Shown: one piece after another, positions 45,484 to 61,870 of the stretch
Numbering within the stretch: the first letter of the stretch is position 1
How the letters are laid out: each line of letters starts with the position of its first letter
DNA from: Steroidobacteraceae bacterium
GTDB lineage: Bacteria > Pseudomonadota > Gammaproteobacteria > Steroidobacterales > Steroidobacteraceae
Length of the DNA: 64,000 nucleotides
Assembly (NCBI GenBank): GCA_019634915.1
Contig: JAHCAN010000004.1
Coordinates: forward strand, 60,848 to 124,847
Reading direction: 5' to 3'
The notes under the pieces: model-generated
Databases searched by the model: none
Seen by the model: only the letters and a program-made list of their open reading frames with translations
What the model was told of the DNA's origin: nothing
Program-made: the position numbers and the translations under genes

Positions 45484-45499
45484 TAGAAAAATTGTTCTA
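45484..45499. promoter_or_regulatory. Inositol-regulon operator, phytase/antiporter site
   Basis: TAGAA-AAATTG-TTCTA is a perfect palindrome in its five-base arms with a 6-base spacer. It matches the pattern TRGAA-N6-TTCYA that recurs at the iol operon and TonB receptor promoters, and the GGAA-N6-TTCC rule reported for RpiR-type IolR. It lies between the divergent antiporter and phytase genes, 17 bases upstream of the phytase ATG. Confidence 0.65.
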
Positions 45500-45515
45500 C
45501 ATGAGGTGACCGACG

Positions 45516-47558
45516 ATGCGTACGCAGCTGCTTGCCGGACTGCTGGTCCTCGCGCTTGCCGGCTGCGGCAGCCGCGAGCCTGTCGCCAAAGATGCCGGCA
45601 CGGCGCGCATCACCGACGTCGCGCCGCTCGCGCAGACCGTCGCGAGCCCGGAGAACGACGGCAACGACGTCGCCTTCTGGCTGCATCCGCAGGATGCCGC
45701 GCGCAGCCTCGTGCTCGGCACCGGCGGCACTGCGGGCCTCGAGCTGTACTCGCTCGACGGCCAGCGGCTCTCGGCCTATCCGGACATCCAGCCCGATAAT
45801 CTCACGGTCAGCCACGATCTCGTGATCGCGAGCGACCGGCGCAGCGCCGGCCTCGTCGTGCTCGCGATCGACCCGGCGTCGCTCGCGGTGCAACGCCTGA
45901 CGCGCGATGCGCTGCCGGTGCACGGCGAAGTCAACGGCCTGTGCGCCTATCGCAGCCCGGATACGGGCCTGCAATACGTGTTCGCGGTCGTCGAGGGCAA
46001 CGTGCAGCAGTGGCAGCTGCGGCGCAGCGGCGCGGCGGTCCAGGGCGCGCTCGTGCGCACGGTCCCGGTCGGCGTGGGCAGCGGCTATTGCGCGGTCGAC
46101 GATGCCAGCCGCACGCTGTTCGTCGCCGAGGAGACCGTCGGCATCTGGCGCATCGCCGCAGAGCCCGAGACCGATGCCGAGCGCAAGGCGGTCGATCTGG
46201 TCGCGCCCACCGGCCACATCGAGGACGAGGTCAAGGGGCTTGCCGTCTACCGGGCCGGCGCCGACAAGGCCTATCTGCTCGCGGCCGACATCAAGCCCGG
46301 CCGCTTCAATGTCTACGATCTCGCCGACGACAGCTGGCTCGGCAGCTTCCGGATCATCGCGACCGACACGATCGATGCGGTGGGGGAGAGCGAAGGGCTC
46401 GCCGCGACGACGCTGCCGCTCGCCGGCTCGGCGGGCGGGCTCGTCGCGACCTTCGACGAGGAGAACCTGAGCGGCAGCGGCGACATCAAGATCGTCGCCT
46501 GGGACGCGATCGCGCAGGGGCTCGGCCTCGCGGCCAGCGCGGATGCCGATCCGCGCGTCCTGCCGGCGCCGGTCGCGCGCACGGTGATGCCGACCGTCGA
46601 GACCGTGCCGGTCGGCAACTATGGTGATGCGGCCGACGATCCGGCGATCTGGGTGCACCCGACCGATCCGTCGAAGAGCCTCGTGATCGCGACCAACAAG
46701 AAACTCGGCATCGACGTCTATGACCTCGCCGGCAAGCGCCTGCAGTCGCTGCCGGTCGGGCGCGTGAACAACGTCGACCTGCGCGAGGGCTTCCTGCTCG
46801 ACGGCAAGCCGGTCACGCTGGTCGCGGCATCGAACCGCACGACGCTCGGCATCTCGGTGTTCCGCGTCGATACGGCGGCGCGCCGGCTCGTCGAAGTCGG
46901 CGACGGCACGCTGCCTACCGCGCTCGCCGATCCCTATGGCCTGTGCATGTACCGCAGCGCGAAGAGCGGCGAAACTTACGTGTTCATCAACGACAACAAC
47001 GACACCGGCACGATGCGCCAGTGGCGCTTCGTCGACGCCGGCGGCAAGGTCGGTGCCGAAGTGATCCGCAGCTTCGACGTCGGCTCGCTCGCCGAGGGCT
47101 GCGTCGCCGACGACGAAACCGGCGCGCTGTACGTCGCCGAGGAAGACGTTGCGCTGTGGCGCTATTCCGCGGAGCCCGATGGTGGCGCCGAGCGCCGGCA
47201 GGTCGGCAAGGTTGGCCCCGGCGAGCTGACCGACGACGCCGAGGGCGTCTCGATCTGGGCCGGTCCGAACGGCACCGGCTACATCGTGCTGTCGAACCAG
47301 GGTGCCGACAACTACGCGGTGTTCCGGCGCGAGGGCGACAATGCCTTCGTCGGCTTCTTCTCGATCGTCGCGAACGAGGCGCTCGGCATCGACGGCGCGT
47401 CGGAAACCGACGGCCTCGACGTGACCAGCGCGCCGCTCGGGCCGAAGTACCCGAAGGGCCTGCTGGTCGTGCAGGATGGCCGCAACATCGGGCCAAACGA
47501 GCCGCAGAACTTCAAATACGTGTCGTGGGCCGACGTGCTGCAAGCGCTCGGCGAGTAG
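45516..47558 (+). CDS. phy: Tandem-domain beta-propeller phytase lipoprotein
   Basis: A 680-aa phytase that removes phosphates from myo-inositol hexakisphosphate, probably anchored in the outer membrane. The signal ends in LALAGC (lipidated Cys17). Two propeller units follow, about 28-345 and 355-680. The C-terminal unit has the family hallmarks DAADDPAIW (371-379) and NNVDLRE (418-424) and a complete propeller. In the N-terminal unit the first motif is altered to NDGNDVAFW (47-55) and the second to DNLTVS, so its calcium and phosphate sites look degraded; known dual-domain enzymes show the same asymmetry. ATG at 45516 has a TGAGGTGA Shine-Dalgarno. It diverges from the antiporter operon across the shared operator. 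Confidence 0.92.
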   Translation: MRTQLLAGLLVLALAGCGSREPVAKDAGTARITDVAPLAQTVASPENDGNDVAFWLHPQDAARSLVLGTGGTAGLELYSLDGQRLSAYPDIQPDNLTVSHDLVIASDRRSAGLVVLAIDPASLAVQRLTRDALPVHGEVNGLCAYRSPDTGLQYVFAVVEGNVQQWQLRRSGAAVQGALVRTVPVGVGSGYCAVDDASRTLFVAEETVGIWRIAAEPETDAERKAVDLVAPTGHIEDEVKGLAVYRAGADKAYLLAADIKPGRFNVYDLADDSWLGSFRIIATDTIDAVGESEGLAATTLPLAGSAGGLVATFDEENLSGSGDIKIVAWDAIAQGLGLAASADADPRVLPAPVARTVMPTVETVPVGNYGDAADDPAIWVHPTDPSKSLVIATNKKLGIDVYDLAGKRLQSLPVGRVNNVDLREGFLLDGKPVTLVAASNRTTLGISVFRVDTAARRLVEVGDGTLPTALADPYGLCMYRSAKSGETYVFINDNNDTGTMRQWRFVDAGGKVGAEVIRSFDVGSLAEGCVADDETGALYVAEEDVALWRYSAEPDGGAERRQVGKVGPGELTDDAEGVSIWAGPNGTGYIVLSNQGADNYAVFRREGDNAFVGFFSIVANEALGIDGASETDGLDVTSAPLGPKYPKGLLVVQDGRNIGPNEPQNFKYVSWADVLQALGE

Positions 47559-47601
47559 TCAGCGCCGCCGCCGCGCCAATACGCTTGCGTTGCGCAATGC
47601 T

Positions 47602-47625
47602 CCTTACTATTCTCTATAAGTAAGG
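47602..47625. promoter_or_regulatory. Operator palindrome of the AbrB/PIN toxin-antitoxin pair
   Basis: CCTTACT (47602-47608) and AGTAAGG (47619-47625) are perfect inverted arms around a 10-base AT-rich spacer. The spacer contains -10-like sequences (TATTCT 47608-47613, TATAAG 47615-47620), with TTGCGT (47585-47590) as a possible -35 at 17 bp from the first. The antitoxin start is 15 bases further. An antitoxin dimer binding here would autoregulate the pair, as is usual for such modules. Confidence 0.5.
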
Positions 47626-47640
47626 ACAAAGGAGTTGGCC

Positions 47641-47859
47641 ATGAGCACCGATGCAACCCTGACCAGCAAGGGTCAGACCACGATCCCGAAGGCAATTCGC
47701 GATGGTCTGCGCATGAAGACCGGCGACAGGATGACCTTTACGCTGATGCCGGACGGCGTCGTGATCATGCGGGTAAAGAACAAGCACATCTCCGAACTCG
47801 CCGGACTGCTGCACAAGAAGGGCAGGAAACCCGTACCCGTTGCAATGTTGTCACGATAG
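47641..47859 (+). CDS. AbrB/MazE/SpoVT-type antitoxin
   Basis: A 72-aa DNA-binding antitoxin with the swapped-hairpin AbrB domain: TLTSKGQTTIPKAIRDGLRMKTGDRMTFTLMPDGVVIMR at residues 6-44. The C-terminal 28 residues, which would bind and neutralise the toxin, are basic (KKGRKPVPVAMLSR). ATG at 47641 has an excellent AAAGGAG Shine-Dalgarno. An in-frame TTG two codons earlier overlaps that site and was rejected. Its stop codon overlaps the PIN-toxin GTG by one base. The codon use is less GC-biased than in the metabolic genes, which suits a mobile module. Confidence 0.85.
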   Translation: MSTDATLTSKGQTTIPKAIRDGLRMKTGDRMTFTLMPDGVVIMRVKNKHISELAGLLHKKGRKPVPVAMLSR

Positions 47860-48254
47860 TGCTCGGGCTGGACACCAACGTCCTGGTTCGGTATCTGGTT
47901 CGAGACGATCAGCTGCAGTTCGAGAAAGCGCGACGGCTGATCAAGCGCGAATCCGACAAGAGGGAACCTGTTCTCGTCAGCCTGTTGGTACTGCTGGAAA
48001 CGGAGTGGGTGCTGCGAAGCCGGTACGAACTGCCGAAGGCGGAGATCCTCTCGGCATTTTCCATGCTGCTGGACGTTGCGGATCTGGCGTTGGAGGACGA
48101 GCCTGCAGTCGAACACGCCCTGTACTCCTGGAGGAAGTCGGTAGCCGATTTTGCCGATTGCCTGGTCGAAGCCCGCAATCGAAGGCTCGGCTGCGAAGCC
48201 ACGGCGACTTTCGATGCCAAAGCGCTGAAACTTGCCGGATTCATTTCCGTTTAG
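47859..48254 (+). CDS. PIN-domain ribonuclease toxin (VapC-like)
   Basis: A 131-aa PIN-domain protein, the toxin of the pair with the AbrB-type antitoxin. The acidic metal-binding residues of the fold are in place: LDTNVLVRYL at the start, the Glu in LLETEWVL, and the Asp in SVADFADCLV and ATATFDAKAL near the end. PIN toxins cleave specific RNAs with Mg2+ in the cytoplasm. GTG at 47859 overlaps the antitoxin's TAG. It ends 21 bases before the convergent S9 peptidase gene. Its G/C third-position bias is weaker than that of neighbours, consistent with acquisition. Confidence 0.85.
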   Translation: MLGLDTNVLVRYLVRDDQLQFEKARRLIKRESDKREPVLVSLLVLLETEWVLRSRYELPKAEILSAFSMLLDVADLALEDEPAVEHALYSWRKSVADFADCLVEARNRRLGCEATATFDAKALKLAGFISV

Positions 48255-48275
48255 AGATCGTCGGCCTACTCCTCG

Positions 48276-50261
48276 CTAGTCGAGCAGGTAGCGCTGCCAG
48301 AACAGGATCGTTGCGGCGCTGAAGTAGTCGGCATTGGCTTTCTTGCGAAAGCCGTGGCCCTCGTCGTCGAACAGCAGGTACCACACCGGCTGGCCGTTGG
48401 CGCGCACGGCCGCGACGATCTGCTCGGCCTCGGTGTACGGCACGCGCGGATCGTTCCTGCCCTGCGCGACGAACAGCGGCGCCCTGATCTTCGAGGCGTT
48501 CCGCAGCGGCGAGATGCGGTCGAACACGGCTCTCATCTCCGGCATGCGCTCGTCGCCGTACTCGGCGCGGCGCAGGTCGCGGCGGTAACTCTCGGTGTGG
48601 GTCAGGAAGGTCGTGAAGTCGGAAATGCCGACGATGTCCACGCCGGCGCGGATGCGGTCGCTGTAGTGCATCAGTGACGCGAGCACCATGTAGCCGCCAT
48701 AGCTGCCGCCGGTCACGCCGACGCGCGTCGCATCGAGCTCGGCCTGCGCGGCGATCCAGTCGAGCAGCGCACCGATGTCCCTGACCGAATCTTCGCGTTT
48801 CTCCGCGTCGTCGAGCGACAGCCAGGTCCTGCCGTAGCCGGCCGAGCCGCGCACGTTCGGCACGAGCATCGCCACGCCCAGCTCGTCCGCGAGGAATTGC
48901 GCCGTCGCGTTGAAAGACGGCAGCGCCTGGCTCTCCGGCCCGCCGTGGATGTTGATGATGACCGGGTACTTGCCGCGCTGCGCCGCGCCAACGGGCTTGT
49001 AGTAAAACGCCGGGATCGTGCGCGGCTTGCCGTCCACCGTGTCGAAGGTCGGATAGCGCACCAGCGTCGGCGTGACGAATTTCGCCGCATCGAGGCCGCC
49101 GACCTCACTGCGCGTCCAGCGTTCGAGCCGGCCGGCGACGAGGTCGATTACGTACACGTCGTTCGGTGAGGCCGCTGTGCTGATCGCGAGCGCGAGACGC
49201 CCGCCATCCGGCGAGAAGTCGATCCCGCCGATCACGCCGATCGGCAGCTGCGGCAGTCCGACCGGTTCGTGCCCTGGCAGCGAGATCACGTGCAGCCTGC
49301 CGATGCCGTCCTCGTTGGTGACGTAGGCGAGGCGCCGGCCGTCGCCGGCGATGTCGAAACGTTCGACGTCCCACGGGATTGCCGCGCTGACGACCTCGAG
49401 CCGGCCGCTGGCCGGGTCGTGGTAACGCAGGCTGCGGAACTCGACGGGCCTGCCGTCGACGGGTTCGTCGGAGATGAAGTACACGGTCTTGCCGTCCGGG
49501 GCGTAGCGGAAGTCGTCGAACGCAGCCTTGCTGCCGCCGCCCGGGAACAGTTCGAGCTTGCCGGTCCGCAGATCAACCGCGCCCGGATACGACTCGCCGG
49601 CCGAGACGAACTTCAGTACCAGCAGCTCCCGCCCGTCGGGCGAGAAGTCGAGCGGCGTCCAGCTGCCGCCCGCGCTCACGACCGTGCGCACTTCGCTGCT
49701 GCGGGTATCGCGCAGCCACACGTCACGGTCGGTGCCGTTGCGCGCAGTGCTCGAATACGCCATCAGACCGCCGTCACGGCTCAGCACCACGCCGCCGTTC
49801 TGGCTGCGCAGGCCGTCGGTCAGCAGCACGGTGTCGCCGGTCGCGTAATCGAACCAGTACAACTGTCGGAACTCGTCGCCACCCCTGTCTTTCGCGAACA
49901 CGAAGCCGTCGCGCCAGGCCTGCGCTGGCGCGGGGGTCAGGCCGGAGACAGGCTCCCGGTAAAAGGTCAATTGCTCGCGCATGCCGAGCGGCTGGCAGAC
50001 GCGGTGCGCCTGCGCGGTCTCGGCGAAGCGGATGCCGATCAGCAGGCAACCGTCCCGGGTCCAGCCGGCGAGACTCGCGCCGCGGGTGTTCTGATAGCGG
50101 GCGAGTCGCTCGACCAGCTCCTCGGGAATCGCCGGCACGTTCTCGGTGGTCCGGTTGCCGACGATTTCGCGCATGACGGCCGTCGTGGCCTGCTGTGAGA
50201 AGGCCGGCACGGCGAGCAGGGCGGAGAACAGCAAGAAGGGGCGCAAGTGACGACGTGGCAT
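48276..50261 (-). CDS. S9-family prolyl oligopeptidase-like peptidase
   Basis: A 661-aa exported serine peptidase. A signal peptide (MPRRHLRPFLLFSALLAVPAFS) precedes an N-terminal beta-propeller region (about 60-400) and an alpha/beta-hydrolase domain (about 410-661). The catalytic residues are the Ser in GGSYGGYM, the Asp in QGRNDPRVP and the His in DEGHGF. It resembles acylaminoacyl-peptidase/DPP-type S9C enzymes, which release short pieces from peptides in the periplasm. It sits alone between two toxin-antitoxin pairs and is 18 bases after the CcdB gene on the same strand. No link to the inositol genes is evident. Confidence 0.9.
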   Translation of the reverse strand: MPRRHLRPFLLFSALLAVPAFSQQATTAVMREIVGNRTTENVPAIPEELVERLARYQNTRGASLAGWTRDGCLLIGIRFAETAQAHRVCQPLGMREQLTFYREPVSGLTPAPAQAWRDGFVFAKDRGGDEFRQLYWFDYATGDTVLLTDGLRSQNGGVVLSRDGGLMAYSSTARNGTDRDVWLRDTRSSEVRTVVSAGGSWTPLDFSPDGRELLVLKFVSAGESYPGAVDLRTGKLELFPGGGSKAAFDDFRYAPDGKTVYFISDEPVDGRPVEFRSLRYHDPASGRLEVVSAAIPWDVERFDIAGDGRRLAYVTNEDGIGRLHVISLPGHEPVGLPQLPIGVIGGIDFSPDGGRLALAISTAASPNDVYVIDLVAGRLERWTRSEVGGLDAAKFVTPTLVRYPTFDTVDGKPRTIPAFYYKPVGAAQRGKYPVIINIHGGPESQALPSFNATAQFLADELGVAMLVPNVRGSAGYGRTWLSLDDAEKREDSVRDIGALLDWIAAQAELDATRVGVTGGSYGGYMVLASLMHYSDRIRAGVDIVGISDFTTFLTHTESYRRDLRRAEYGDERMPEMRAVFDRISPLRNASKIRAPLFVAQGRNDPRVPYTEAEQIVAAVRANGQPVWYLLFDDEGHGFRKKANADYFSAATILFWQRYLLD

Positions 50262-50279
50262 TCGGGCAGGACCTCCGGG

Positions 50280-50600: not shown

Positions 50601-50601
50601 G

Positions 50602-50853: not shown

Positions 50854-50868
50854 GCGGCATTCCCGATG

Positions 50869-50907: not shown

Positions 50908-50914
50908 TTCATCG

Positions 50915-51787
50915 TCAATGCAAGCCCAGCGCCTCCTCCAGGGTCCGGGCCGTCAGCACACGTTCGCCGATGGCGTCGAGCTCTTCACTGGAAGCCTGTG
51001 AGAGTCGCTGCTGCCCCTCGTCAGTCAATGGTCCGAAGCGCAGGGTGAGCAGGCGGATGAGGAGAGCAGCGCGGCCACGGCGTTCGCCGGCGACTTCTCC
51101 CTGCGCCACGAAGCGTCTGGCGAACTCGCTCTGAAATTCATAACCGGCCGGTTTCATGGCTTGAAGCTCCCTGCGGGCCGCCTTGCTCAAGGAGGCCAGG
51201 ATGAGATCAACATACAAAATGGAACGATCTGCGTCGAGTCCGGCGCTGGCGATCTGCGCGGCAAGGGCTATCTGTACAGATGTGTGAATATCGGGGTCCT
51301 GACCGTGAGCCATGGCTGACAGCACTGCCAGCTCCGGATCTGCCCGGGCACGACCCGTATCCATGATCCGGGGGACTGCCGTGGGACCCACCACCAGCGG
51401 GACGAAGCGGCCATGGACCCCCATGTCTATGGACCTGGCCGCCCAACGAGCGACGCTATCGTTGCCAGCTACCACCATCAGGCATGCGGGACATTCCAGG
51501 CGGGCGCGCAGAGCAGCGACGTAGGCGGGCCAAGCGTAGCGTTTGCGCTCATCGGCAGAGATCTGTATTTCGACGATGATTCCGAGCACCGGTTTTCCAT
51601 TAATCAACAGGACGACCAGATCGGCGCGATACTCGGCCGGTTGCACATCGGTCAGGTCTGCCGACTCGATCCGCACTTCGGTATATGCCGGCAGTTGTCC
51701 CTGCAATGCATCGCGCAGCAGTTCAGGCGCCAGCTCTGGCCGATTGCGGAACAGCTGTACCAGCGCTTCGTGCAGGTACGAGGGCAT
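50915..51787 (-). CDS. Rpn-family PD-(D/E)XK nuclease/putative transposase-like protein
   Basis: A 290-aa protein. The N-terminal PD-(D/E)XK fold shows the acidic pattern EYRADLVVLLINGKPVLGIIVEIQIS, with Asp and a Glu-x-Gln pair as catalytic candidates. The C-terminus (LLTLRFGPLTDEGQQRLSQASSEELDAIGERVLTARTLEEAL) is a DUF4351-like helical module. Rpn proteins nick DNA and promote recA-independent recombination in E. coli, and some are phage-defence or mobility factors. It lies upstream of ccdAB on the same strand with the operator between them. Codon bias is weaker than in the inositol genes, which fits horizontal acquisition. GTG/ATG choice is clear: ATG at 51787 has a clean MPSYLHEALVQLF start. 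Confidence 0.75.
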   Translation of the reverse strand: MPSYLHEALVQLFRNRPELAPELLRDALQGQLPAYTEVRIESADLTDVQPAEYRADLVVLLINGKPVLGIIVEIQISADERKRYAWPAYVAALRARLECPACLMVVAGNDSVARWAARSIDMGVHGRFVPLVVGPTAVPRIMDTGRARADPELAVLSAMAHGQDPDIHTSVQIALAAQIASAGLDADRSILYVDLILASLSKAARRELQAMKPAGYEFQSEFARRFVAQGEVAGERRGRAALLIRLLTLRFGPLTDEGQQRLSQASSEELDAIGERVLTARTLEEALGLH

Positions 51788-51889: not shown

Positions 51890-53287
51890 CTATCCGCGCT
51901 TCGCCATCTCCGCCGGATCGATCCGCTCGCGCCAGGTCGACACGCCATTGCGCAGGTCGGCCGGCGTCAGCACGAGTGGCTTCCAGGGCCTGAGCCCCCA
52001 TTCGTCGAACAGCGTGAACGTGAGCGTCGGCTCCGGTGCCGGCGTGAAGTGCAGCATGCCGAAGTTCGCGCCGCCGGCGTACACGCTGCGCATGCGGATC
52101 TCGGGCTGCTGTTCGATCCACGACGTCGACGGCGACTGCGCGAGCGGCGAGCTGACGAGGTCGTAGAGATCGTAGCCGCCGTGCTCCGACCACGGGATGC
52201 AGTTCAGCTCGCCGACATGGCTGTCGCCGGAGAGCAGCACCACGCCTTCGATGCGCGCGTCGCGCAGAAAATCGAACAGCGCGTCGCGCTCGGTGCGGAA
52301 CGCCGCCCAGGTATCGCCGGCGGGGCCGTCGGCCATCGACCAGCCGCTGCCGCAGGCGATGATCTTGAACGGTGCGCGGCTCGCCGCGAGCCGCTCCCTG
52401 AGCCAGGCGTTCTGCGCGGCGCCGAGGAACTGCTTGCGCGGGCCATCCGGATCGCCGTTCGGCGAGCGGTGGTAACGGCCGTCGAGCATGAAGAAATCGA
52501 CGCCGCTGAAATGTTTCTCGAAGAACACGCCGGGCGTGCCGGGCAGGCCGTAGGCCGGGTTCGCCCAGTAGTTCCGGAAGGTCGCGAGCGAGCCGGCCTT
52601 GAACGGCGAGCTGCCGTCGCTGTTGTTGTAGCCGAAGTCGTGGTCGTCCCAGATCGCGAGCTGCGGCACCGAGCGGATCAGCGGCGCGAGCGACGCGACC
52701 TTGCGCTGGCGGCGGTATTCGTCGGCGATCGCCTCGGGCGCCTCGGAGTCCGCGTAGACGTTGTCGCCGAGCCAGAGGAAGAGATCGGGCGACTCGCGCA
52801 CGACGCTGTCGAAGATGCGCTGCACCGGATCGCGCGCGAGGCGCGCGCAAGAGCCGAAGGCGACGCGAAAGTCGGCCGCACCCGCCGGCGCGGTGCGCAC
52901 GGCGACGGGAACGCTCTGGTAGCGATCGACGACACCGTCGACGACCGGGCGATACCAGTAGGTGGCGCCGGGCTCGAGGCCGTCGATGCGGACCGCGGCC
53001 GTGAAATCGCTCGCGGCATCGGTCGCGACCGCGGCACTCGTCAGCGGCGCCCGGAATTCGCGGTCCTTCGAATACTGGAACGCGATCGGGTACGGGCCAT
53101 TGGCGCGGCCCCAGATCGTCAGGTGCTGCGGCCCGGTGTCGCCGATCATCGGCCCCTGCTGCAGGCGCGGGTAGCCGAGCGTCGCGGCGAGCGCGCGCCA
53201 TGGCGCGAGCGCGAGGCCGGCGGCGCCCGCGGTCGCGCCGAGCAGCCGGCGTCGCAGCGGGTCGATCATCGACCGGTGCTTCGTCAC
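51890..53287 (-). CDS. phoD: PhoD-like alkaline phosphatase/phosphodiesterase, Tat-exported
   Basis: A 465-aa PhoD-family enzyme. A twin-arginine signal (PLRRRLLGATAGAAGLALA) directs folded export to the periplasm. An N-terminal beta domain (about 40-130) precedes the metal-binding core with FGSCARL, LWLGDNVYAD, AIWDDHDFGYNN and LLSGDSHVGEL, which carry the Asp, Asn and His ligands for Ca/Fe. PhoD acts on phosphate mono- and diesters. GTG at 53287 overlaps the iolE stop by 4 bases, the same overlap as between the iol genes, so I take it as the start; ATG at 53269 is an alternative six codons on. Being the last gene of the iol operon links it to inositol phosphates by context. Confidence 0.88.
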   Translation of the reverse strand: MTKHRSMIDPLRRRLLGATAGAAGLALAPWRALAATLGYPRLQQGPMIGDTGPQHLTIWGRANGPYPIAFQYSKDREFRAPLTSAAVATDAASDFTAAVRIDGLEPGATYWYRPVVDGVVDRYQSVPVAVRTAPAGAADFRVAFGSCARLARDPVQRIFDSVVRESPDLFLWLGDNVYADSEAPEAIADEYRRQRKVASLAPLIRSVPQLAIWDDHDFGYNNSDGSSPFKAGSLATFRNYWANPAYGLPGTPGVFFEKHFSGVDFFMLDGRYHRSPNGDPDGPRKQFLGAAQNAWLRERLAASRAPFKIIACGSGWSMADGPAGDTWAAFRTERDALFDFLRDARIEGVVLLSGDSHVGELNCIPWSEHGGYDLYDLVSSPLAQSPSTSWIEQQPEIRMRSVYAGGANFGMLHFTPAPEPTLTFTLFDEWGLRPWKPLVLTPADLRNGVSTWRERIDPAEMAKRG

Positions 53288-54167
53288 GAGAAGATCTCGC
53301 CGGCGATGCGCGCGAGGTATTCGTGCCCGAGGCGCGCACAGGTCGACGGGATCGCGACCGCCGGGTCCTGCTCGGCTTCGACGACGAGCCAGCCTTCGTA
53401 ACCGGCGCGCGCGATCGGGCCGAGCACCGCCGGGAAGTCGACGCCGCCGTCGCCCGGCACCGTGAACACGCCCTGCAATACGGCGTCGAGGAAGCTTGCG
53501 TCGCGATTGATCGCGCGCGCGAGCACGGCGGGCCGCACGTCCTTGCAGTGCACGTGGGTGATGCGCGCGGCGTAGCTGGTCGCGAAGCGGACCGGATCCT
53601 CGCCGGCATAGGTGAGGTGGCCGGTGTCGAGCAGCAGGCCGACCGCGGGTCCGGTGTGCGTCATCAGCGTGTCGACGTCGGCGCCCGACTGCACGACCGT
53701 GCCCATGTGGTGGTGGTAGGCCATGCGCATGCCGGCGGCCTGCATGCGTTCGGCGAGCCGCGTGAGCTGCTCGCCGAATGCGGCCCAGCGCTGCGGCGGC
53801 ATGTGTGGCCGGCGCGACAGGCGCGCGCCGAGGTTGCCGTGGACGCAGCCGGTCACTTCGCAGACGACCATCACGGTCGAACCGAGCGCCTTCAGCAGCT
53901 CGAGGTGGCCGGCCATCGCGGCGAACTCGGCGTCGACGTCGCGCTCGAGCAGCCGCAGGCTGTACCAGCCCGACACGAGCCGCAGGTCGTGCTGCGCGAG
54001 GATCGGCCCGAGTCGCGCGGCGTCGCGCGGAAACTTGCGGCCGAGCTCGACGCCGGCGTAGCCTGCCTCGCGCGCCTCGCGCAGGCAGGTCTCGAGCGGG
54101 ATGTCGGCGCCGAGGCCGGGAAGATCGTCGTTCGTCCAGGTGATCGGGTTGATGCCGAGGTCGATCG

Positions 54168-54171
<4 letters not shown>
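53284..54171 (-). CDS. iolE: Myo-inosose-2 dehydratase
   Basis: A 295-aa TIM-barrel enzyme of the xylose-isomerase-like family. It removes water from 2-keto-myo-inositol to give 3D-trihydroxycyclohexane-1,2-dione. The start GINPITWTNDDLPGLGADIPLETCLREAREAGYAGVELGRKFP is typical of IolE. Metal-ligand candidates include the Glu in VVEAEQDP, the Asp in LLLDTGHLTYAG and the His in RITHVHCKDV. Its ATG overlaps the iolD stop by 4 bases and its stop overlaps the phoD GTG by 4. Length is as expected (about 300 aa). Confidence 0.93.
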
Positions 54172-55987
<1,816 letters not shown>

Positions 55988-55991
<4 letters not shown>

Positions 55992-57898
55992 GGCCGCAGT
56001 CCGCGCCAGATGTCGATCAGGCGCTCGTAGCGCGTCGCGATCGCGGCGATGACACCGTGATCGTCGAGCTCGCCGCGCATCCATTCGCGCGCCGGCACGC
56101 CGAAGATGCTGCGCCCGACCGCGAAGCCGCGGCAGATCGGGAATGGGGCCGCCTGCTCGAACGCGACGCGCAGGCGGGATTCCGCCGCATCGAGGCCGAG
56201 CAGCAGCACGCCGTTGCAGTGCGGGTCGAATTCCATGATCACATCCCGGATGCGGGGCCACGCGGCGGGCGAGGGCGGCTCGAGCTTCCACCACGCCGGC
56301 TGCACGCCGAGGTTGTAGAAGCGCCGCAGCACGCGCGCCATGGTCGCATCGTCGACAGCATGCCCGCGGCCGCTCGCGACGACCTCGAGCAGCAGCTCCC
56401 GGTCGAGCGCCTGCGCATCGCGCGCGAGCTCGACGACACGCTCTTCCTGCGCGAGGCGCAGCTCGAGCGGGTCGTCGGGATGATAGAACACCAGGCACTT
56501 GATGACGTGGCTTGCGGGCCAGGTGAGCAGCGGCAGGCCGCTGTGGTTACGCGGCTCGAGTTCGAGCGGGCGCGAGCCGGGCACCTCGATCGCGCGGCCG
56601 ACCCAGTAGCCGGCATGCGTCATGCGCGACAGCACGTCCTCGCCGTAGCGGTCGTCGACGATCACGCCGAGGCGATCGCCATAAGCCACGCGCGCCGCGA
56701 CGCGCTCGACGGCGTCGGCGATCAGGTCCTTGAAGCGCCGGATCCGCTCCACCGGCAGCCCCTGGCTGCCGGCGAGCTGCTCGAGCTGGCGCCGGTGGTC
56801 GAACGCGAGCACGTACAGGTCGCGCCGCGGGCGGCGCGTCGTCGTCGCACTGTGCAGCTGCACGAGCCGCTGGTCGAGATCGGGTCGGCGCACCTCGGCG
56901 GCACGCGCGAGGAAGTCGTCGAGCTCGGTGCGGCTCGGCAACGCCGGCGCGCAGCCGTGGCGCGAGACGACGAGCGCGCCGCAGGCGTTGCCGTAGGCCG
57001 CCGCGCGCGGCCAGTCGGCGCCGGTGAGCCGGCCGTAGAGCAGGCCCGACAGGAAGGCGTCGCCGGCGCCGAGCGTGTTCAGCACTTCGACCGGAAAGCC
57101 CGGCACGTCGATCGGCTCGCCGCCCGGCGGATGGATCGTGCAGCCGGCCGCGCCGCGCTTGACGACGATCGTCGCGTCGCTCGCCTCGCGAATCGCCTCG
57201 CGCGCGCGCTCGGTGTCCTCGTCGCCGCCGGCGATGCGGATTTCCTCCTCGGTACCGACGATCAGGTCGCAGTGCTCGAGCAGCGGCGCGATGCGCGCCG
57301 TCACCGCGCCCGAGGCGACGAAGCGGTTGGCGCCGTCGCCGGCCGCGGTCAGGCCCCACAGCACCGGGCGGTAGTCGATGTCGAATACCACCGCGGTGCC
57401 ATGCGCGCGCGCGAGCGCGACCGCCTTCATCACGGCCGCCGCGGTCGACGGCGTCGACAGGTGCGTGCCGGTGATCGCGAGCATGCGGCTCGACGCGATG
57501 TACGCGGCGTCGAAGTCCTCGCTCGTGAGGCCCATGTCGGCGCACTGTTCGCGATAGAAAATGTGCGGGAAATCGTCGCGGCCGGCGATACCGAGCAGCA
57601 CGAGCCCGGTCAGGCGCCGAGGATCGGTCGCGAGATGGCTGACGTCGACGCCGGCGAGCGCGAGCGCCTCGCGCACGAAGCGCCCCATCTGCTCGTCGCC
57701 GACCCGCGAGAGCATCGACGGGCGCGCGCCGAGCCGGGCGAGCCCGAACGCGACGTTCGCCGACGAGCCGCCGGGATACTTCGCGAAGCTCTGCACGTCC
57801 TCGAAGCGCCCGCCGAGCTGCTGTCCGTAGAGGTCGACGGCGGCGCGCCCGAGGCAGATCACGTCGAGCGCGCGTGCGCCGCCCGCCGCCTCGCTCAT
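55988..57898 (-). CDS. iolC: 5-dehydro-2-deoxygluconokinase fused to DUF2090
   Basis: A 636-aa fusion. Residues 10-325 are a PfkB kinase (ICLGRAAVDLYGQQLGGRFEDVQSFAKYPGGSSANVAFGLARLG, with NTLGAGDAFLSGLLYGRL as the catalytic motif) that phosphorylates 2-deoxy-5-keto-D-gluconate. Residues 330-636 are a DUF2090 domain (YVLAFDHRRQLEQLAG, a TIM-barrel aldolase-like fold). This fusion replaces the separate iolJ aldolase in many proteobacteria, so DUF2090 probably splits the product into DHAP and malonate semialdehyde; that is an inference, and no iolJ is present. Both junctions overlap neighbouring genes by 4 bases. Confidence 0.92.
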
Positions 57899-58701
57899 GA
57901 TTCGTCCCCGGGCCACCAGAACTGCGCGCCGGGCGCCATCGTCCACGCGTGCTCCGGCGTGAACTCGGGCACCGTGTAGGGCAGGCCCGGCAGATGGCGG
58001 ATCACCCACGAGTAATACATCCCGTAGCCGGGCGCGGCACATTGCGCGTGATCGTTGCCGGCCGGAATGCAGATCGAGTCGTACTGGCGCACCTTCACGA
58101 CCTGCTCGCCGAGCTCGGCGTGGCCGTAGCCCTGCGGGGCCGTGAAGCGGTAGTGGTAGATCTCGGGCTGCGGATGATGGTGCGGCGGATAGCTCGACCA
58201 GCCGCCGGGGAACGTGACCACCTCGCCGAGCACGAGCTGTGCCTCGGGCGGCGAATTGCGCGTATCGAAGATCGTGCGCACGTAGCGCAGGCTGCGGTCG
58301 CGCACCTGGCCCTTGCCGCGATGCTCGTTCGGCACGTCGGCGGGGCGGAACACGCGCGGCGCGAAGGCCGCCGCGTTGACGCAGTCGTACACGGTGAGCT
58401 CGCACGCCTCGATCGCATGCAGCGTGACGCGCGTGCCCGCGGCGACGTGCAGGCAGCTCGCCGATTCGTCGAACAGCGAGCCGCGCGAGAGCACGGCCTC
58501 GACGTCGCCGGCCCCGACGCGCAGCGAGCCCGACATCAGCAGCCAGGCGGTCTCACGCTCGACGGGTTGTGACCAGCGCTCGCCCGCGGCGAGGCGCAGG
58601 ACGCCGAAACCGATGCCGGTGGCATTGGCCGGATCGGCGGCGCGGGTCACGGCCGTGTAGCCGTCCGGAAAGCCGGCGCGATGCGCGGTCAGGTGGTTCA
58701 C
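57895..58701 (-). CDS. iolB: 5-deoxy-glucuronate isomerase
   Basis: A 268-aa bicupin enzyme that isomerises 5-deoxy-D-glucuronate to 2-deoxy-5-keto-D-gluconate. The metal site is found in the second cupin: PPHHHPQPEIYHYRFTAPQGYGHAELG with multiple His and a Glu, followed by CIPAGNDHAQCAAPGYGMYYSWVIRHL. Length and order match IolB. ATG at 58701 overlaps the dehydrogenase stop by 4 bases and its own stop overlaps the iolC ATG by 4. It is the step that links IolD to IolC. Confidence 0.94.
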   Translation of the reverse strand: MNHLTAHRAGFPDGYTAVTRAADPANATGIGFGVLRLAAGERWSQPVERETAWLLMSGSLRVGAGDVEAVLSRGSLFDESASCLHVAAGTRVTLHAIEACELTVYDCVNAAAFAPRVFRPADVPNEHRGKGQVRDRSLRYVRTIFDTRNSPPEAQLVLGEVVTFPGGWSSYPPHHHPQPEIYHYRFTAPQGYGHAELGEQVVKVRQYDSICIPAGNDHAQCAAPGYGMYYSWVIRHLPGLPYTVPEFTPEHAWTMAPGAQFWWPGDES

Positions 58702-59822
58702 GACGGCACCTCGGTCCAGCTGCGCGAGGCGTGCGACTGCTCGATCGCCTCCATGACCCGCTGCACGCGCACGCCCTCATGGAAATCGGGCCAGCCCGGT
58801 GTGCCGTTCGCGATCGCGCGCAGCACGTTGCGCACCTCGATCACCTTCAGGTCGTTGTAGCCGAGGCCGTGGCCCGGCGCGGGGCAGAACGGGCGGTAGT
58901 CCGGATGCTCGGGGCCTGCGAGGATCGTGCGAAAGCCGCTGCGCGCTGCCGGCCCCGCGGCATCGTAGTGGCGCAGCTCGTTCATGCGCTCCTGCTGGAA
59001 TTCGAGCGCGCCGCGCGTGCCGAAGACCGAGAACGCGAGGCCGCACTTGTAACCGGTGCCGACCCGGCTGATCTCGAACGTGCCTGGCAGGCCGCGCTCG
59101 AATTCGACCAGCGCACGGGCGATGTCCTCGTTCTCGACCGCGCGCAGCTGGCCGCTCGCCGGGTCGCGCCGCTGCGCGTGCACGGTCTGCAGGCTGCCCT
59201 GCACGCGCGCGATGCCGCCGAGCAGGAAGTGGCCGAGATTGATCAGGTGCGAGCCGAGGTCGGCGAGCGCGCCGCTGCCGGCGAGCGCGCGGTCGCAGCG
59301 CCAGGTCCACGGCACCGCCGGATCGCTCATGTAGTCCTCGAGGTAGCTGCCGCGAAACGCGTACACCTCGCCGAGCTCGCCGGCGGCGATCATCTCGCGC
59401 GCGAGCTGCAGCAGCGGATTGCAGATGTAGTTGAAGCCCATCATGTGGCGCACGCCGGCCGCATCGGCGGCCGCGGCGATCTCGGCGGCTTCGCGCGCGG
59501 TGTTGGCGAGCGGCTTCTCGCAGTACACATGCTTGCCGGCGGCGATCGCGGCCAGTGCCATTTCGCGGTGCAGGTGGTTCGGCGTGCAGACGTCGACCAC
59601 GTCGACCGCACGGTCCGTGACGAGCGCGCGCCAGTCGCCGGTCGAGCGCGCGAAGCCGAGCGCACGCGCGCCGCGCGCCGCGCTGTCGACCGTCGTGTCG
59701 GCGAGCAGCTCGCAGACCGGGGCTTCCTGGTCGGCGAAGACCGCGCCGACGGCGTTCAGGGCAATGGCATGCGCGCGGCCGATGAAGCCGGTGCCGATCA
59801 ATCCGAATCTGGGGCGGGCCAT
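58698..59822 (-). CDS. Gfo/Idh/MocA dehydrogenase, scyllo-inositol type
   Basis: A 374-aa NAD(P)-dependent oxidoreductase. The Rossmann part has GLIGTGFIGRAHAIALN, and the family motif is HVYCEKPLANTA with the catalytic Lys. ADLGSHLINLGHFLLGG carries the second catalytic residues (Asp and His). It is not IolG, which is encoded by the next gene upstream. It could interconvert scyllo- and other inositol isomers or an inosose, as IolX/IolW do. It is the first gene behind the operator-bearing promoter (59855-59883), so the iolBCDE-phoD part can be expressed separately from the regulator. ATG at 59822. Confidence 0.83.
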   Translation of the reverse strand: MARPRFGLIGTGFIGRAHAIALNAVGAVFADQEAPVCELLADTTVDSAARGARALGFARSTGDWRALVTDRAVDVVDVCTPNHLHREMALAAIAAGKHVYCEKPLANTAREAAEIAAAADAAGVRHMMGFNYICNPLLQLAREMIAAGELGEVYAFRGSYLEDYMSDPAVPWTWRCDRALAGSGALADLGSHLINLGHFLLGGIARVQGSLQTVHAQRRDPASGQLRAVENEDIARALVEFERGLPGTFEISRVGTGYKCGLAFSVFGTRGALEFQQERMNELRHYDAAGPAARSGFRTILAGPEHPDYRPFCPAPGHGLGYNDLKVIEVRNVLRAIANGTPGWPDFHEGVRVQRVMEAIEQSHASRSWTEVPS

Positions 59823-59854
59823 GGGTGCCGGAAATTATCGCGAGTGGTCCCGCG

Positions 59855-59883
59855 ACGATAGCGAAATGGAATCAGAATTTCAA
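59855..59883 (-). promoter_or_regulatory. Internal promoter for the iolBCDE-phoD section
   Basis: Reading leftward, TTGAAA (complement of 59878-59883) and TATCGT (complement of 59855-59860) form a -35/-10 pair separated by exactly 17 bp. The operator 59867-59882 covers the -35 element and most of the spacer, so repressor binding would exclude polymerase. The predicted start leaves a leader of about 30 bases before the ATG at 59822. Confidence 0.55.
59867..59882. promoter_or_regulatory. Inositol-regulon operator, iol site 1
   Basis: TGGAA-TCAGAA-TTTCA fits the TRGAA-N6-TTCYA pattern with one changed base in the right arm (TTTCA for TTCCA). It overlaps the -35 of the internal iol promoter. The core ATGGAATCAGA is repeated in reverse complement at the TonB receptor site 61855-61870, a further sign of shared control. 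Confidence 0.6.
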
Positions 59884-59896
59884 GATTGGAAGGTTC

Positions 59897-59912
59897 TGAA
59901 AAATGTGTTCTA
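59897..59912. promoter_or_regulatory. Inositol-regulon operator, iol site 2
   Basis: TGAAA-AATGTG-TTCTA matches the right arm exactly and the left arm with two changes. Its centre is 30 bp (about three helical turns) from site 1, suited to cooperative binding on one face. The last bases overlap the iolG stop codon. Confidence 0.5.
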
Positions 59913-60905
59913 TCGTGACAGCAGCACCGGCGCGCGCGTCTCGAGCGAGCGCTGCGCGGCATCGGCGAGCGCGAGCGCCTGCCGGCCGTCGGCGCCGGTC
60001 GCGAGCTGCGCGGGCTTGCCCCGCAGCGCTTCGAGGAACTCGTCGAGTTCGTGGCGATACGCTGCCGCATAGCGCTCGAGGAAGAACGGCAGCGCGGGCT
60101 CGCGCGTGAAACCGCCGGCGTCCGCGGTTTCGACCGTGGTGGCCGGCACGTTGTCGGCGCGCGCGAGGCCGGCGGAGCCGAAGACCTCGATGCGCTGGTC
60201 GTAGCCATAGGCGCAGCGGCGGCTGTTGGTGATCTGGCACAGCCGTCCGCTTTGCGTCTCGAGCACCACGACGGCGGTGTCGATGTCGCCGGCGGTGCCG
60301 ATCGCCGGGTCGATCAGCGCGCTGCCGCGCGCGTACACCGAGACCGGCTCCTCGCCGAGCAGCCAGCGCGCCATGTCGAGGTCGTGGATCATCATGTCGC
60401 GGAAGAGGCCCCCGGAGCGCGCCACATAGGCGGGCGGCGGCGCCGCCGGGTCGCGGCTCGTGATGCTGACGACCTCGACCGTGCCGACGCGGCCGGCCGC
60501 GATCTCGCGGTGCAGGCGCCGGAAGGCGGGGTCGTAGCGGCGGTTGAAGCCGAGCGCGAGCAGGATGCCGGCCTCGCCGGCGACCGCGAGGCTCGCATCG
60601 GCGCGCGCGAGATCGAGATCCAGCGGCTTCTCGCAGAACACCGCCTTGCCGGCGCGCGCGCCGGCCTGGATCAGTTCGGCATGCGTGTCGGTCGAACTCG
60701 CGACCAGGATCGCCTGCACCTGCGGGTCGGCGAGCGCCGTGCGCGTGTCGCTGACCTGCGCGCCGGTCGCGGCCGCGAGCCGTTGCGCGGCGTCGGCCGA
60801 GACGTCGATCACGTGGCGCAGCGCCACGTCGGCGTGGGCGGCGAGATTGCGGGCGTGGATCTGGCCGATGCGACCGGCGCCGAACAGCGCGAAACCGTGT
60901 TTCAA
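59910..60905 (-). CDS. iolG: Myo-inositol 2-dehydrogenase
   Basis: A 331-aa Gfo/Idh/MocA enzyme that oxidises myo-inositol to 2-keto-myo-inositol with NAD. It has the Rossmann start KHGFALFGAGRIGQIHARNLA, the EKP motif (VFCEKPLDLD) and the catalytic Asp and His in RDMMIHDLDMARWLLG. TTG at 60905 was chosen because its codon overlaps the regulator's TGA by 4 bases and puts the protein start exactly where IolG homologues begin. The longer in-frame ATG at 60977 would extend the protein into the regulator gene with an unrelated sequence. Expression is thus probably coupled to that of the regulator. Confidence 0.92.
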   Translation of the reverse strand: MKHGFALFGAGRIGQIHARNLAAHADVALRHVIDVSADAAQRLAAATGAQVSDTRTALADPQVQAILVASSTDTHAELIQAGARAGKAVFCEKPLDLDLARADASLAVAGEAGILLALGFNRRYDPAFRRLHREIAAGRVGTVEVVSITSRDPAAPPPAYVARSGGLFRDMMIHDLDMARWLLGEEPVSVYARGSALIDPAIGTAGDIDTAVVVLETQSGRLCQITNSRRCAYGYDQRIEVFGSAGLARADNVPATTVETADAGGFTREPALPFFLERYAAAYRHELDEFLEALRGKPAQLATGADGRQALALADAAQRSLETRAPVLLSR

Positions 60906-61759
60906 CCTGCCTTGCCTTTCTGGATGCGGCGCTCCGACTGGAACGCATAACTGATGACCAGCGTCTGCGCGAGGCACAGCGAGGCGGTCAGCGAGCGGAA
61001 CTGGCGCACCTCGGCGTCCTTCGTCTCGAAGACCACGTCGGCATCGCGCGCGATCGGCGACAGGCGCGTGTCGCTGATCGCGAGCACGCGCGCGCCGCGG
61101 CCGCGCGCCTGCTCGACGATCTCGGCCGTCTCCTTCGCGTACGGACGGAAACTGATTGCGATCAGCAGGTCGGCCTGCCTGACCATGCCGCTCTGCTCGG
61201 CGAGCATGCCGGCGACGCCGTCGAGCAGATAGGTGCGCTTGTCGTCGACGTGGCGCAGCGCGTAGGCGAGGTAGGAGGCGACCGGGAACGAGCGGCGCAG
61301 GCCGATGATGTAGACCGCCGGCGCCTCGCGGATCAGCGCGACCGCCTTCTCGAGATCGGCCTTCCTGATCGATTCCTTCAAATGCTCGAGCGCGATGATG
61401 TTGCTGTCGGCGAACTCCTGCATCAGCTCGTGCGGCGAGAGCACGTCGACCGCGCCGGCGCGCTGGTTGAACTGGCGGATGCGGTCGGCATAGCTCGGGC
61501 TCGGCGCGAACTGCAGCAGCTCGTCGCGGAACAGCTTCTGCATGTCGCTCGCGCCCTCGTAGCCCATCGCCTTCGCGAAGCGCACGACGGTCGACGGCTG
61601 CACCTTGCAGCGCTCGGCGATCACCGCGAGCGTCTGCAGGCCCATGTCGTTCGGATGTTCGAGCACGAACTGCGCCACCTGCTGCAGTCGCGGGCTCAGG
61701 CTGTCGTATTGGCGCACGATCTCGCTGCGCAGTTTTTCGACGTCTTTGGCGGGGGCCAC
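60902..61759 (-). CDS. iolR: RpiR-family transcriptional regulator of inositol genes
   Basis: A 285-aa regulator. The N-terminal RpiR HTH (about 1-77) is LSPRLQQVAQFVLEHPNDMGLQTLAVIAERCKVQPSTVVRFAKAMGYEGASDMQKLFRDEL. The SIS sugar-phosphate-binding domain (about 125-265) is AVALIREAPAVYIIGLRRSFPVASYLAYALRHVDDKRTYLLDG onward. As in rhizobial IolR, the SIS domain would sense a phosphorylated pathway intermediate such as 2-deoxy-5-keto-gluconate-6-phosphate, and release DNA. This is inferred from family and position. It is followed by iolG with a 4-base overlap. The operator at 61795-61810, just upstream of its start (61759), suggests self-regulation. Confidence 0.88.
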   Translation of the reverse strand: MAPAKDVEKLRSEIVRQYDSLSPRLQQVAQFVLEHPNDMGLQTLAVIAERCKVQPSTVVRFAKAMGYEGASDMQKLFRDELLQFAPSPSYADRIRQFNQRAGAVDVLSPHELMQEFADSNIIALEHLKESIRKADLEKAVALIREAPAVYIIGLRRSFPVASYLAYALRHVDDKRTYLLDGVAGMLAEQSGMVRQADLLIAISFRPYAKETAEIVEQARGRGARVLAISDTRLSPIARDADVVFETKDAEVRQFRSLTASLCLAQTLVISYAFQSERRIQKGKAG

Positions 61760-61794
61760 GTGTCGGGTCGTCCAGCTCGTATGGCGGTCGAAAT

Positions 61795-61810
61795 TAGAAC
61801 ATATATTTCA
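61795..61810. promoter_or_regulatory. Inositol-regulon operator, regulator site
   Basis: TAGAA-CATATA-TTTCA matches the pattern with one changed base in the right arm. It lies 36 bases upstream of the regulator's ATG, over the -10 region of a leftward promoter (TTGACG at the complement of 61822-61827 as -35, TATATG or TATGTT as -10). Binding here would autoregulate the iolR-iolG transcript. Confidence 0.55.
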
Positions 61811-61814
61811 TGTA

Positions 61815-61844
61815 TTGCCACCGTCAAAATTATTGTTCTATAAT
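61815..61844 (+). promoter_or_regulatory. Strong promoter of the TonB receptor gene
   Basis: TTGCCA (61815-61820) and a perfect TATAAT (61839-61844) are separated by 18 bp. Transcription is predicted to begin near 61851, leaving a leader of about 45 bases before the ATG at 61896, with a CGAGGGGGGC stretch as a possible Shine-Dalgarno. Operators lie within the spacer and -10 (61825-61840) and just downstream of the start (61855-61870). Confidence 0.7.
61825..61840. promoter_or_regulatory. Inositol-regulon operator, receptor site 1
   Basis: CAAAA-TTATTG-TTCTA matches the right arm exactly and only part of the left arm. It covers the spacer and first two bases of the -10 of the TonB receptor promoter. 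Its centre is 30 bp from both the regulator site and receptor site 2, so the three sites are evenly spaced. Confidence 0.5.
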
Positions 61845-61854
61845 CAGGCCGTAA

Positions 61855-61870
61855 TGGAACTCTGATTCCA
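61855..61870. promoter_or_regulatory. Inositol-regulon operator, receptor site 2
   Basis: TGGAA-CTCTGA-TTCCA is a perfect palindrome and the exact GGAA-N6-TTCC form reported for RpiR-type IolR. It lies just after the predicted transcription start of the TonB receptor gene, where bound repressor would act as a roadblock. Confidence 0.65.

What the first reader, a model, noticed from the sequence alone, without database searches (positions are those of the whole stretch)
45484..61870. Six matching palindromes tie phytase, transporter, iol operon and TonB receptor into one regulon
The pattern TRGAA-N6-TTCYA (16 bp) occurs at 45484, 59867, 59897, 61795, 61825 and 61855. Two copies are perfect palindromes; the others carry one to three arm changes. 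Each lies in a promoter of a gene plausibly tied to inositol: phytase/antiporter, the internal iol promoter, the RpiR regulator and the TonB receptor. Established knowledge: RpiR-type IolR in rhizobia uses GGAA-N6-TTCC. Inference: the regulator at 60902-61759 represses all units and is released by an inositol intermediate. The joint control of a phytase, a phosphate-ester carrier and inositol catabolism would be a complete phytate-eating system.
Basis: partly seen in the sequence, partly recalled or inferred. Interest (0 to 1): 0.92.

Follow-up and report, generated by a model that had tools for sequence, protein, structure and literature searches.

The report
Phytate-eating regulon with phased repressor sites
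In an uncultured gammaproteobacterium, one inositol regulator appears to control a whole set of genes for taking up and eating plant phytate, through DNA sites set exactly 30 bases apart, and the set includes a predicted pyrophosphate-linked inositol kinase.

Summary
The six sites are real and lie where stated. A seventh (45454) was missed. They form tandem arrays of exactly 30-bp period at three promoters: phytase/carrier (2 sites), iolG2 operon (2), iolR/TonB receptor (3). The single motif is not specific: 55 genome matches against 47 for a reversed control. The array is: in the window close pairs occur only at period 30 and its double, and 60 simulations gave none at 30.

Counting the window's own genome, the phytase pair and the TonB triple are kept in 6 of 6 genus genomes with these genes, the iolG2 pair in 5 of 6; arms are 97-100% identical, spacers and flanks drift. 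In the seventh no iolR, phytase or iolD was found.

Three genomes outside the genus have a 30-bp pair before phytase and/or TonB gene; six others with both an IolR homologue and a phytase show none beside the phytase.

Added here: the co-located PfkB protein matches the pyrophosphate-dependent inositol kinase TM0415, with all five donor residues; the carrier is GlpT-like. Binding, repression, inducer and substrates are inferred, not shown.

The parts
   Evidence: lies in the spacer of a by-eye promoter TTGTGG (45447-45452)-N18-TATGAT (45471-45476); the promoter scan found none at its threshold; 30-bp pair kept in 6 of 6 genus genomes with a phytase, own included
45484..45499 (.). operator 2 of the phytase/carrier pair, perfect arms
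59867..59882 (.). operator over the -35 and spacer of the predicted iolG2-iolBCDE-phoD promoter (minus strand)
   Evidence: TTGAAA from 59883, TATCGT to 59855; pair kept in 5 of 6 genus genomes
59897..59912 (.). second operator of the iolG2 promoter, 30 bp upstream
61795..61810 (.). operator 1 of the iolR/TonB triple
   Evidence: overlaps the predicted minus-strand iolR -10
61825..61840 (.). operator 2 of the triple, in the spacer and first two bases of the -10 of the predicted TonB promoter TTGCCA (61815-61820)-N18-TATAAT (61839-61844)
61855..61870 (.). operator 3 of the triple, perfect arms, just downstream of the likely start of the TonB transcript
   Evidence: start inferred from the -10
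60902..61759 (-). IolR-type RpiR regulator (HTH_6 + SIS)
   Evidence: Pfam above cut-off; relatives next to iol genes
59910..60899 (-). iolG, inositol 2-dehydrogenase (start approximate)
   Evidence: TIGR04380 above cut-off; coordinates
58698..59822 (-). iolG2, GFO/IDH/MocA dehydrogenase; best NCBIfam model is levoglucosan dehydrogenase, below cut-off
57895..58701 (-). iolB, KduI/IolB family
   Evidence: PF04962 above cut-off; TIGR04378 matched but below cut-off (100 against 205 bits)
55988..57898 (-). iolC fused to the aldolase (5-dehydro-2-deoxygluconokinase / DKGP aldolase)
   Evidence: NF047869 and TIGR04382 above cut-off
54168..55991 (-). iolD
   Evidence: TIGR04377 above cut-off
53284..54171 (-). 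iolE, myo-inosose-2 dehydratase
   Evidence: TIGR04379 above cut-off; start
51890..53269 (-). PhoD-like phosphatase with a Tat-like N-terminus (by eye), last gene of the iol operon
   Evidence: PF09423 above cut-off; NCBIfam PhoD model far below cut-off
45516..47558 (+). dual-domain beta-propeller phytase, lipoprotein-type N-terminus (by eye)
   Evidence: PF02333; second domain matches PDB 1poo, E 5e-77
44080..45432 (-). organophosphate:phosphate antiporter-like carrier (GlpT/UhpT type); longer start possible at 45480
   Evidence: PDB 1pw4 E 3e-48; NCBIfam OPA models matched below cut-off; conserved in relatives
43158..44060 (-). predicted pyrophosphate-dependent inositol kinase (TM0415 type)
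   Evidence: PDB 5ysp (TM0415), E 3e-43; five of five PPi-signature residues
41863..43152 (-). calcineurin-like phosphoesterase, lipoprotein-type N-terminus (by eye)
   Evidence: PF00149; no NCBIfam match; coordinates
40317..41852 (-). mmsA/iolA, CoA-acylating methylmalonate-semialdehyde dehydrogenase
   Evidence: TIGR01722 above cut-off
61896..64000 (+). TonB-dependent receptor, cut by the end of the contig
   Evidence: TIGR01782 above cut-off; contig ends at the window end

Best explanation
An IolR-type RpiR repressor (60902-61759) controls three promoter regions and so a phytate/inositol-phosphate regulon: TonB receptor, iolR-iolG, iolG2-iolBCDE-phoD, phytase, and the carrier-kinase-phosphoesterase-mmsA operon. 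Dimers bind 16-bp palindromes TRRAA-N6-TTYYA. Each region carries two or three of them spaced exactly 30 bp (about three helical turns), so neighbouring dimers sit on about one face of the DNA and can be joined, probably as the tetramer usual for the family. In each region one operator covers the -35/-10 spacer of a predicted promoter and would block RNA polymerase. An inositol-pathway metabolite (DKGP in the work cited by PMC8877191) would release the repressor. The products would take phytate through the outer membrane, strip phosphates outside the cytoplasm (phytase, phosphoesterase, PhoD-like), import inositol phosphate in exchange for phosphate, and burn inositol through the iol pathway. 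Shown here: sites, spacing, conservation, gene families, joint absence in one genus member. Inferred: binding, repression, inducer, substrate route.
For: Exact 30-bp period in all three regions and, apart from its double, no other period in the window. Own genome counted, the phytase pair and the TonB triple are kept in 6 of 6 genus genomes that have these genes, the iolG2 pair in 5 of 6; site arms 0.97-1.00 identical against 0.46-0.71 in spacers and 0.35-0.51 in ungapped flanks. In the sixth (G004) iolG2 follows iolG by 19 bp and no sites are there. iolR, phytase and iolD were all not found in the seventh, G003, 91% complete. 30-bp pairs also in front of iolR in L051, L055 and L057, and distances of 29-30 (8) and 59-60 (3) among 21 site pairs (16-100 bp apart) in the iol-bearing regions among L127-L170, against 2 pairs with the reversed motif. 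30-bp pairs before phytase in G070 and G776 and before the TonB gene in G645, whose iol clusters also carry the carrier. Operators over predicted promoters at TonB, iolR and iolG2. Of 43 single-site matches elsewhere in the genome none has a 30-bp partner with 2 mismatches or fewer. Published related site GGAA-N6-TTCC with repression in Caulobacter (PMC2597717, passages); two IolR sites per promoter and oligomers in Salmonella (PMC5349611, passages).
Against: No binding or expression data for this protein. Six of nine non-genus genomes with both an IolR homologue (E 1e-40 or better) and a phytase (E 1e-60 or better) show no 30-bp pair beside the phytase (G532, G536, G563, G689, G713, G747; about 0.4-1.2 kb upstream covered), so the link is not general. 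In G645 the pair is before the TonB gene and none was found beside its phytase. Most of the IolR-homologue regions show no array with this motif. The strict published motif fits only one of the seven sites exactly. The genome is a 78.6% complete MAG and 5 of its 55 single-site matches were not listed, and one more listed site was not checked. In G004 phytase and regulator lie on different short contigs, so their linkage there is not shown. The phytase promoter was read by eye; one search found none.
Confidence: 0.83

Rival explanations
1. IolR is the binder, but as activator or mixed regulator, with effector-dependent tetramers bridging the 30-bp sites (as proposed for the RpiR protein SpNanR), rather than as plain repressor.
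For: SpNanR is an RpiR activator whose effector stabilises the tetramer without changing DNA affinity (PMC12713135, a preprint, passages). Two of the three arrays have a site upstream of the predicted -35.
Against: In each region one site covers the -35/-10 spacer of a predicted promoter, where bound protein normally blocks polymerase; IolR of Caulobacter and Salmonella represses.
Confidence: 0.1
2. The sites belong to another regulator, not to the RpiR protein beside them.
For: No binding data; the palindrome is simple.
Against: The only other RpiR-like match in the held genome is weak (E 4.7e-6, 22% identity); arrays flank iolR itself in the genus and in L051, L055 and L057; the motif resembles the published IolR site.
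Confidence: 0.05
3. The palindromes are chance matches in AT-rich promoters.
For: Single-site counts are near background.
Against: Spacing statistics and conservation of arms over spacers.
Confidence: 0.02

Closest known systems
IolR (RpiR family) inositol regulon of Caulobacter crescentus and rhizobia (PMC2597717, passages)
   Same: RpiR-type regulator of iol genes; related palindrome GGAA-N6-TTCC; two sites in the iolC promoter, starting 59 bp apart by the positions given (119-104 and 60-45 upstream)
   Different: The published module has an ABC inositol transporter; 'TonB' and 'phytate' do not occur in the text and 'phytase' only in a reference title; no fixed 30-bp spacing ('tandem', 'spacing' absent)
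Salmonella IolR (PMC5349611, passages)
   Same: at least two IolR sites in most iol promoters and oligomeric binding
   Different: the words motif and palindrome do not occur; no phytase in the passages read
TM0415, pyrophosphate-dependent inositol kinase of Thermotoga maritima (PMC5931981; abstract, passages, sections 6, 8, 10)
   Same: 102 of 270 aligned residues identical; K171, F221, R229, R232, M266 and RXGRGD kept; acceptor residues D11, Q141, R145 kept
   Different: N78 and S89 are leucine here, as at the matching places of the ATP-dependent Thermococcus inositol 3-kinase; L116 is serine; lies with an organophosphate-type carrier under IolR of the RpiR family, whereas the Thermotoga inositol regulator is a ROK protein
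GlpT/UhpT organophosphate:phosphate antiporters
   Same: 1pw4 match E 3e-48; residues aligned to GlpT R45, H165, R269 (numbers recalled; the last two read by eye) kept in all eight sequences aligned
   Different: below the cut-off of every NCBIfam OPA model; substrate unknown; located in iol clusters
Phytase next to a TonB receptor (Citromicrobium, PMC3400609, passage)
   Same: phytase adjacent to a TonB receptor, phytate proposed as its substrate
   Different: no iol genes or IolR control in the passage

Membership tests
IolR / RpiR-family inositol regulator | RpiR HTH plus SIS domain | tested here: met
   PF01418 and PF01380 above cut-off
IolR / RpiR-family inositol regulator | encoded with inositol catabolic genes | tested here: met
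   iolG, C, D, E by NCBIfam above cut-off, iolB by Pfam
IolR / RpiR-family inositol regulator | GGAA-N6-TTCC operator in regulated promoters | tested here: inconclusive
   strict form exact in 1 of 7 sites and with one mismatch in 1 more; the 40 sites of the genus arrays fit the relaxed TRRAA-N6-TTYYA except a C at position 1 in 6
IolR / RpiR-family inositol regulator | represses iol genes and is released by an inositol intermediate | not testable with these tools
   needs binding and expression assays
PPi-dependent ribokinase-family kinase (TM0415 type) | five signature residues K171, F221, R229, R232, M266 | tested here: met
   5 of 5; also in the four genus relatives aligned
PPi-dependent ribokinase-family kinase (TM0415 type) | RXGRGD motif | tested here: met
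   RSGRGD
PPi-dependent ribokinase-family kinase (TM0415 type) | uses PPi and not ATP | not testable with these tools
   enzyme assay needed; acceptor also open
Organophosphate:phosphate antiporter (OPA) family | conserved phosphate-binding arginine pair (GlpT R45, R269; recalled) | tested here: met
   alignments
Organophosphate:phosphate antiporter (OPA) family | score above an NCBIfam model of a named carrier | tested here: not met
   best models (UhpC, PgtP, GlpT) all below cut-off; so no named carrier is claimed and the substrate is open
Beta-propeller phytase | PF02333 and match to solved phytases | tested here: met
   Ca-binding residues not checked one by one

The most novel reading that the evidence does not exclude
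The regulon encodes an energy-conserving way to eat phytate: the carrier brings in inositol monophosphate in exchange for phosphate, and the TM0415-type kinase runs in reverse (inositol phosphate + Pi to inositol + PPi), so the phosphoester bond is kept as pyrophosphate and used by the membrane H+-pyrophosphatase, while inositol goes down the iol pathway. Carrier and kinase lie next to each other in one apparent operon behind an IolR-type array; a full-length H+-pyrophosphatase is present in this genome.
Probability: 0.2. Interest if true: 0.8.

Novelty: new variant of a known kind. Interest (0 to 1): 0.6.

Why it matters
Phytate is a large store of organic phosphorus in soil. Phytases are mostly discussed as phosphate-releasing enzymes; here phytase appears to be controlled by the inositol (carbon) regulator, together with an outer-membrane receptor, a phosphate-ester-type carrier and inositol catabolism. 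The fixed 30-bp phasing, seen also near iolR outside the genus, gives a searchable grammar for IolR regulons. The co-located TM0415-type kinase gives a concrete setting in which the unclear role of pyrophosphate-dependent inositol kinases could be tested.

Tried and rejected
Single-motif genome scan as a specificity test: rejected, because 55 matches against 47 for the reversed control and 91 against 95 in the genome without the cluster show that single sites say little. 43 of the 44 listed matches outside the window were fetched and checked (49 exist, 5 were not listed): none has a 30-bp partner with 2 mismatches or fewer; two have one with 3.

RpiR homologues in order-level relatives (L042-L045): no match to the other window proteins at 1e-15 and no arrays; set aside as other RpiR subfamilies and left out of alignment A1.

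Generality of phytase control: 25 phytase loci outside the genus examined, two have a 30-bp pair; two others have pairs at 25 and 43 bp; the reversed motif gave one pair, at 17. Plasmid phytases (20 records) and carrier relatives on plasmids (7 records, at most 43% identical) were listed but not followed.

The TM0415-type kinase is rare: at E 1e-20 or better only the window's own copy was found in 299 phylum genomes, and it was not found in the non-genus clusters L131, L138 and L139. The phosphoesterase is not a fixed part: in G001 and G002 mmsA follows the kinase directly.

Literature: (phytase or phytate with inositol and TonB terms) returned no paper. One search returned three and two; of these five I read passages of one (PMC3400609). 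One search (phytase + IolR) returned nine; I read passages of four (PMC9430895, PMC12838507, PMC10783015, PMC2597717) and none describes a phytase under IolR; PMC12838507 reports no conserved gene neighbourhood of phytase genes in pig-gut isolates. Searches were used as listings. The library is open-access only, so this is no proof of absence. No structure prediction was run.
Full report
Observation. A seventh, TGAAACGGCATTTCTA at 45454, lies exactly 30 bp from 45484. The seven sites form three tandem arrays of exactly 30-bp period: two sites between phytase and carrier, two before iolG2, three between iolR and the TonB receptor. Site pairs with summed mismatches of 3 or less occur in the window at period 30 (four) and 60 (one) and at no other period from 16 to 60; 60 Markov simulations gave none at period 30 and a mean of 0.017 over all periods together.

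Specificity. The single motif is near background: 55 matches against 47 for the reversed pattern in this 78.6%-complete MAG. Of the 50 listed, 6 are window sites; I fetched stretches around 43 of the other 44, and none has a 30-bp partner with 2 mismatches or fewer, two have one with 3. In G003, a genus genome in which the cluster was not found, counts are 91 against 95, and none of the 50 listed sites is 30 bp from another.

Phylogenetic footprint. The genus has seven held genomes; two matching records are titled Steroidobacteraceae, a gammaproteobacterial family. Six, the window's own included, have iolR (relatives 86-91% identical), phytase (71-74%) and iolD (81-86%); G003 (91% complete) gave no match to any of the three. 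The phytase pair and the iolR/TonB triple are kept in 6 of 6, the iolG2 pair in 5 of 6; in G004 iolG2 starts 19 bp after iolG and no sites are there. In G004 phytase and regulator are on separate short contigs. Mean pairwise identity in site arms is 0.97-1.00, in spacers 0.46-0.71, in flanks (ungapped) 0.35-0.51. In 40 sites, positions A4, A5, T12, T13 and A16 do not vary; the consensus is better written TRRAA-N6-TTYYA.

Promoter geometry. On the plus strand TTGCCA (61815)-N18-TATAAT (61839-61844) precedes the TonB gene; the middle site fills the spacer, the third lies just downstream of the likely start. A minus-strand promoter TTGAAA-N17-TATCGT precedes iolG2, with the 59867 site over -35 and spacer, and a weaker minus-strand promoter for iolR overlaps two sites of the triple. 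At the phytase I read TTGTGG-N18-TATGAT by eye, with 45454 in the spacer; the scan did not find it at its threshold. One operator in each region would thus occlude polymerase and its neighbour sits about three turns away. [quoted passage not shown]

Beyond the genus. 30-bp pairs lie before iolR in L051 (68% identical regulator), L055 and L057. Among 21 site pairs, 16-100 bp apart, in the iol-bearing regions among L127-L170, 8 are 29-30 and 3 are 59-60 bp apart, against 2 pairs for the reversed motif; most regions show no pair (the 33 shorter loci come from genomes mostly the same and are not independent). The two Caulobacter iolC sites start 59 bp apart by the positions given in PMC2597717. 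In G070 (same class) and in G776 and G645 (same phylum) the iol cluster also carries the carrier (61-71% identical). A 30-bp pair stands between phytase and a divergent TonB gene in G070 (ACGAACAAAAATTCCA-N14-TGGAATTTCTCTTGCA), a very similar one before phytase in G776 (where a partial TonB match lies divergently), and an inverted one before the TonB gene in G645, whose phytase is about 6 kb away with no pair beside it. Against generality: six further genomes with both an IolR homologue and a phytase show no pair beside the phytase, within about 0.4-1.2 kb of upstream sequence.

What the genes do. The phytase has two PF02333 domains, the second matching the Bacillus enzyme 1poo (E 5e-77). The carrier matches GlpT (E 3e-48) with the residues at GlpT R45, H165 and R269 (numbering recalled) kept in eight sequences. 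PhoD-like phosphatase, phosphoesterase and phytase have export-type N-termini (by eye). iolB, C, D, E, G and mmsA complete the inositol path; iolC is the fused kinase/aldolase.

The kinase. The PfkB protein at 43158-44060 best matches TM0415 of Thermotoga and a chain that looks like a variant of it. TM0415 phosphorylates inositol with pyrophosphate and not ATP; its Km for inositol is 12 mM and the authors say that the true acceptor may be another compound of the pathway (PMC5931981; abstract, passages and sections 6, 8 and 10 read). All five donor residues and the RXGRGD motif are kept, also in the four relatives aligned; a fifth, G004, shows the kinase in part at a contig end. Acceptor residues D11, Q141 and R145 are kept, N78 and S89 are leucine as in the ATP-dependent inositol 3-kinase. 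The gene was found only in this genome among 299 phylum genomes at E 1e-20 and not in the three non-genus clusters, so it is a genus trait and not part of every such cluster. H+-pyrophosphatase is present in 6 of 7 genus genomes, G003 included, full length in 4, so it is not tied to the cluster. The reverse, PPi-forming reaction is my hypothesis; with textbook energies (recalled) it is slightly uphill and needs PPi removal.

Verdict. It is a new variant of the known IolR regulon, extended to phytate and inositol phosphates, with a phased operator array.

Noticed in passing
L033 14862/14882, L035 15139/15159, L038 4626/4646, L039 14619/14639, L051 9902/9922: An extra pair of sites with 20-bp period lies near the iolR start in four genus relatives and in L051, but not in the window, where the stretch between the triple and iolR is about 100 bp shorter than in L033.
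   Followed up: partly
window 58698-59822: iolG2 scores far better with the levoglucosan dehydrogenase model (E 4e-98, below cut-off) than with the iolG model; its substrate is open.
   Followed up: no
window 60902-61759, residues 200-211: The second SIS loop of the regulator reads SFRPY where classical RpiR proteins have SxSGxT (recalled); an [ST][FY]xPY loop is present in at least 34 of the 46 IolR homologues compared.
   Followed up: partly
L127, L128, L129 (Sphingobium, Sphingomonas, Novosphingobium plasmids): iolR beside TonB receptor genes, and in the latter two also a GH92 glycosidase, an APC permease and a carbohydrate kinase; possibly other inositol-conjugate regulons.
   Followed up: no
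L037 and L040 (G001, G002): The PhoD-like gene lies directly beside the phytase gene there.
   Followed up: no
window 47859-48254: PIN-domain protein (VapC-like, recalled) between the phytase and the iol operon.
   Followed up: no
window 50915-51787: DUF4351 protein (Rpn/transposase-like, recalled) beside the iol operon.
   Followed up: no
window 37718-40336: Glycosyltransferase family 2 protein with a weak GH17 match, next to the end of mmsA on the other strand.
   Followed up: no
window 64000: The window end is the contig end, so the TonB receptor gene is cut.
   Followed up: yes
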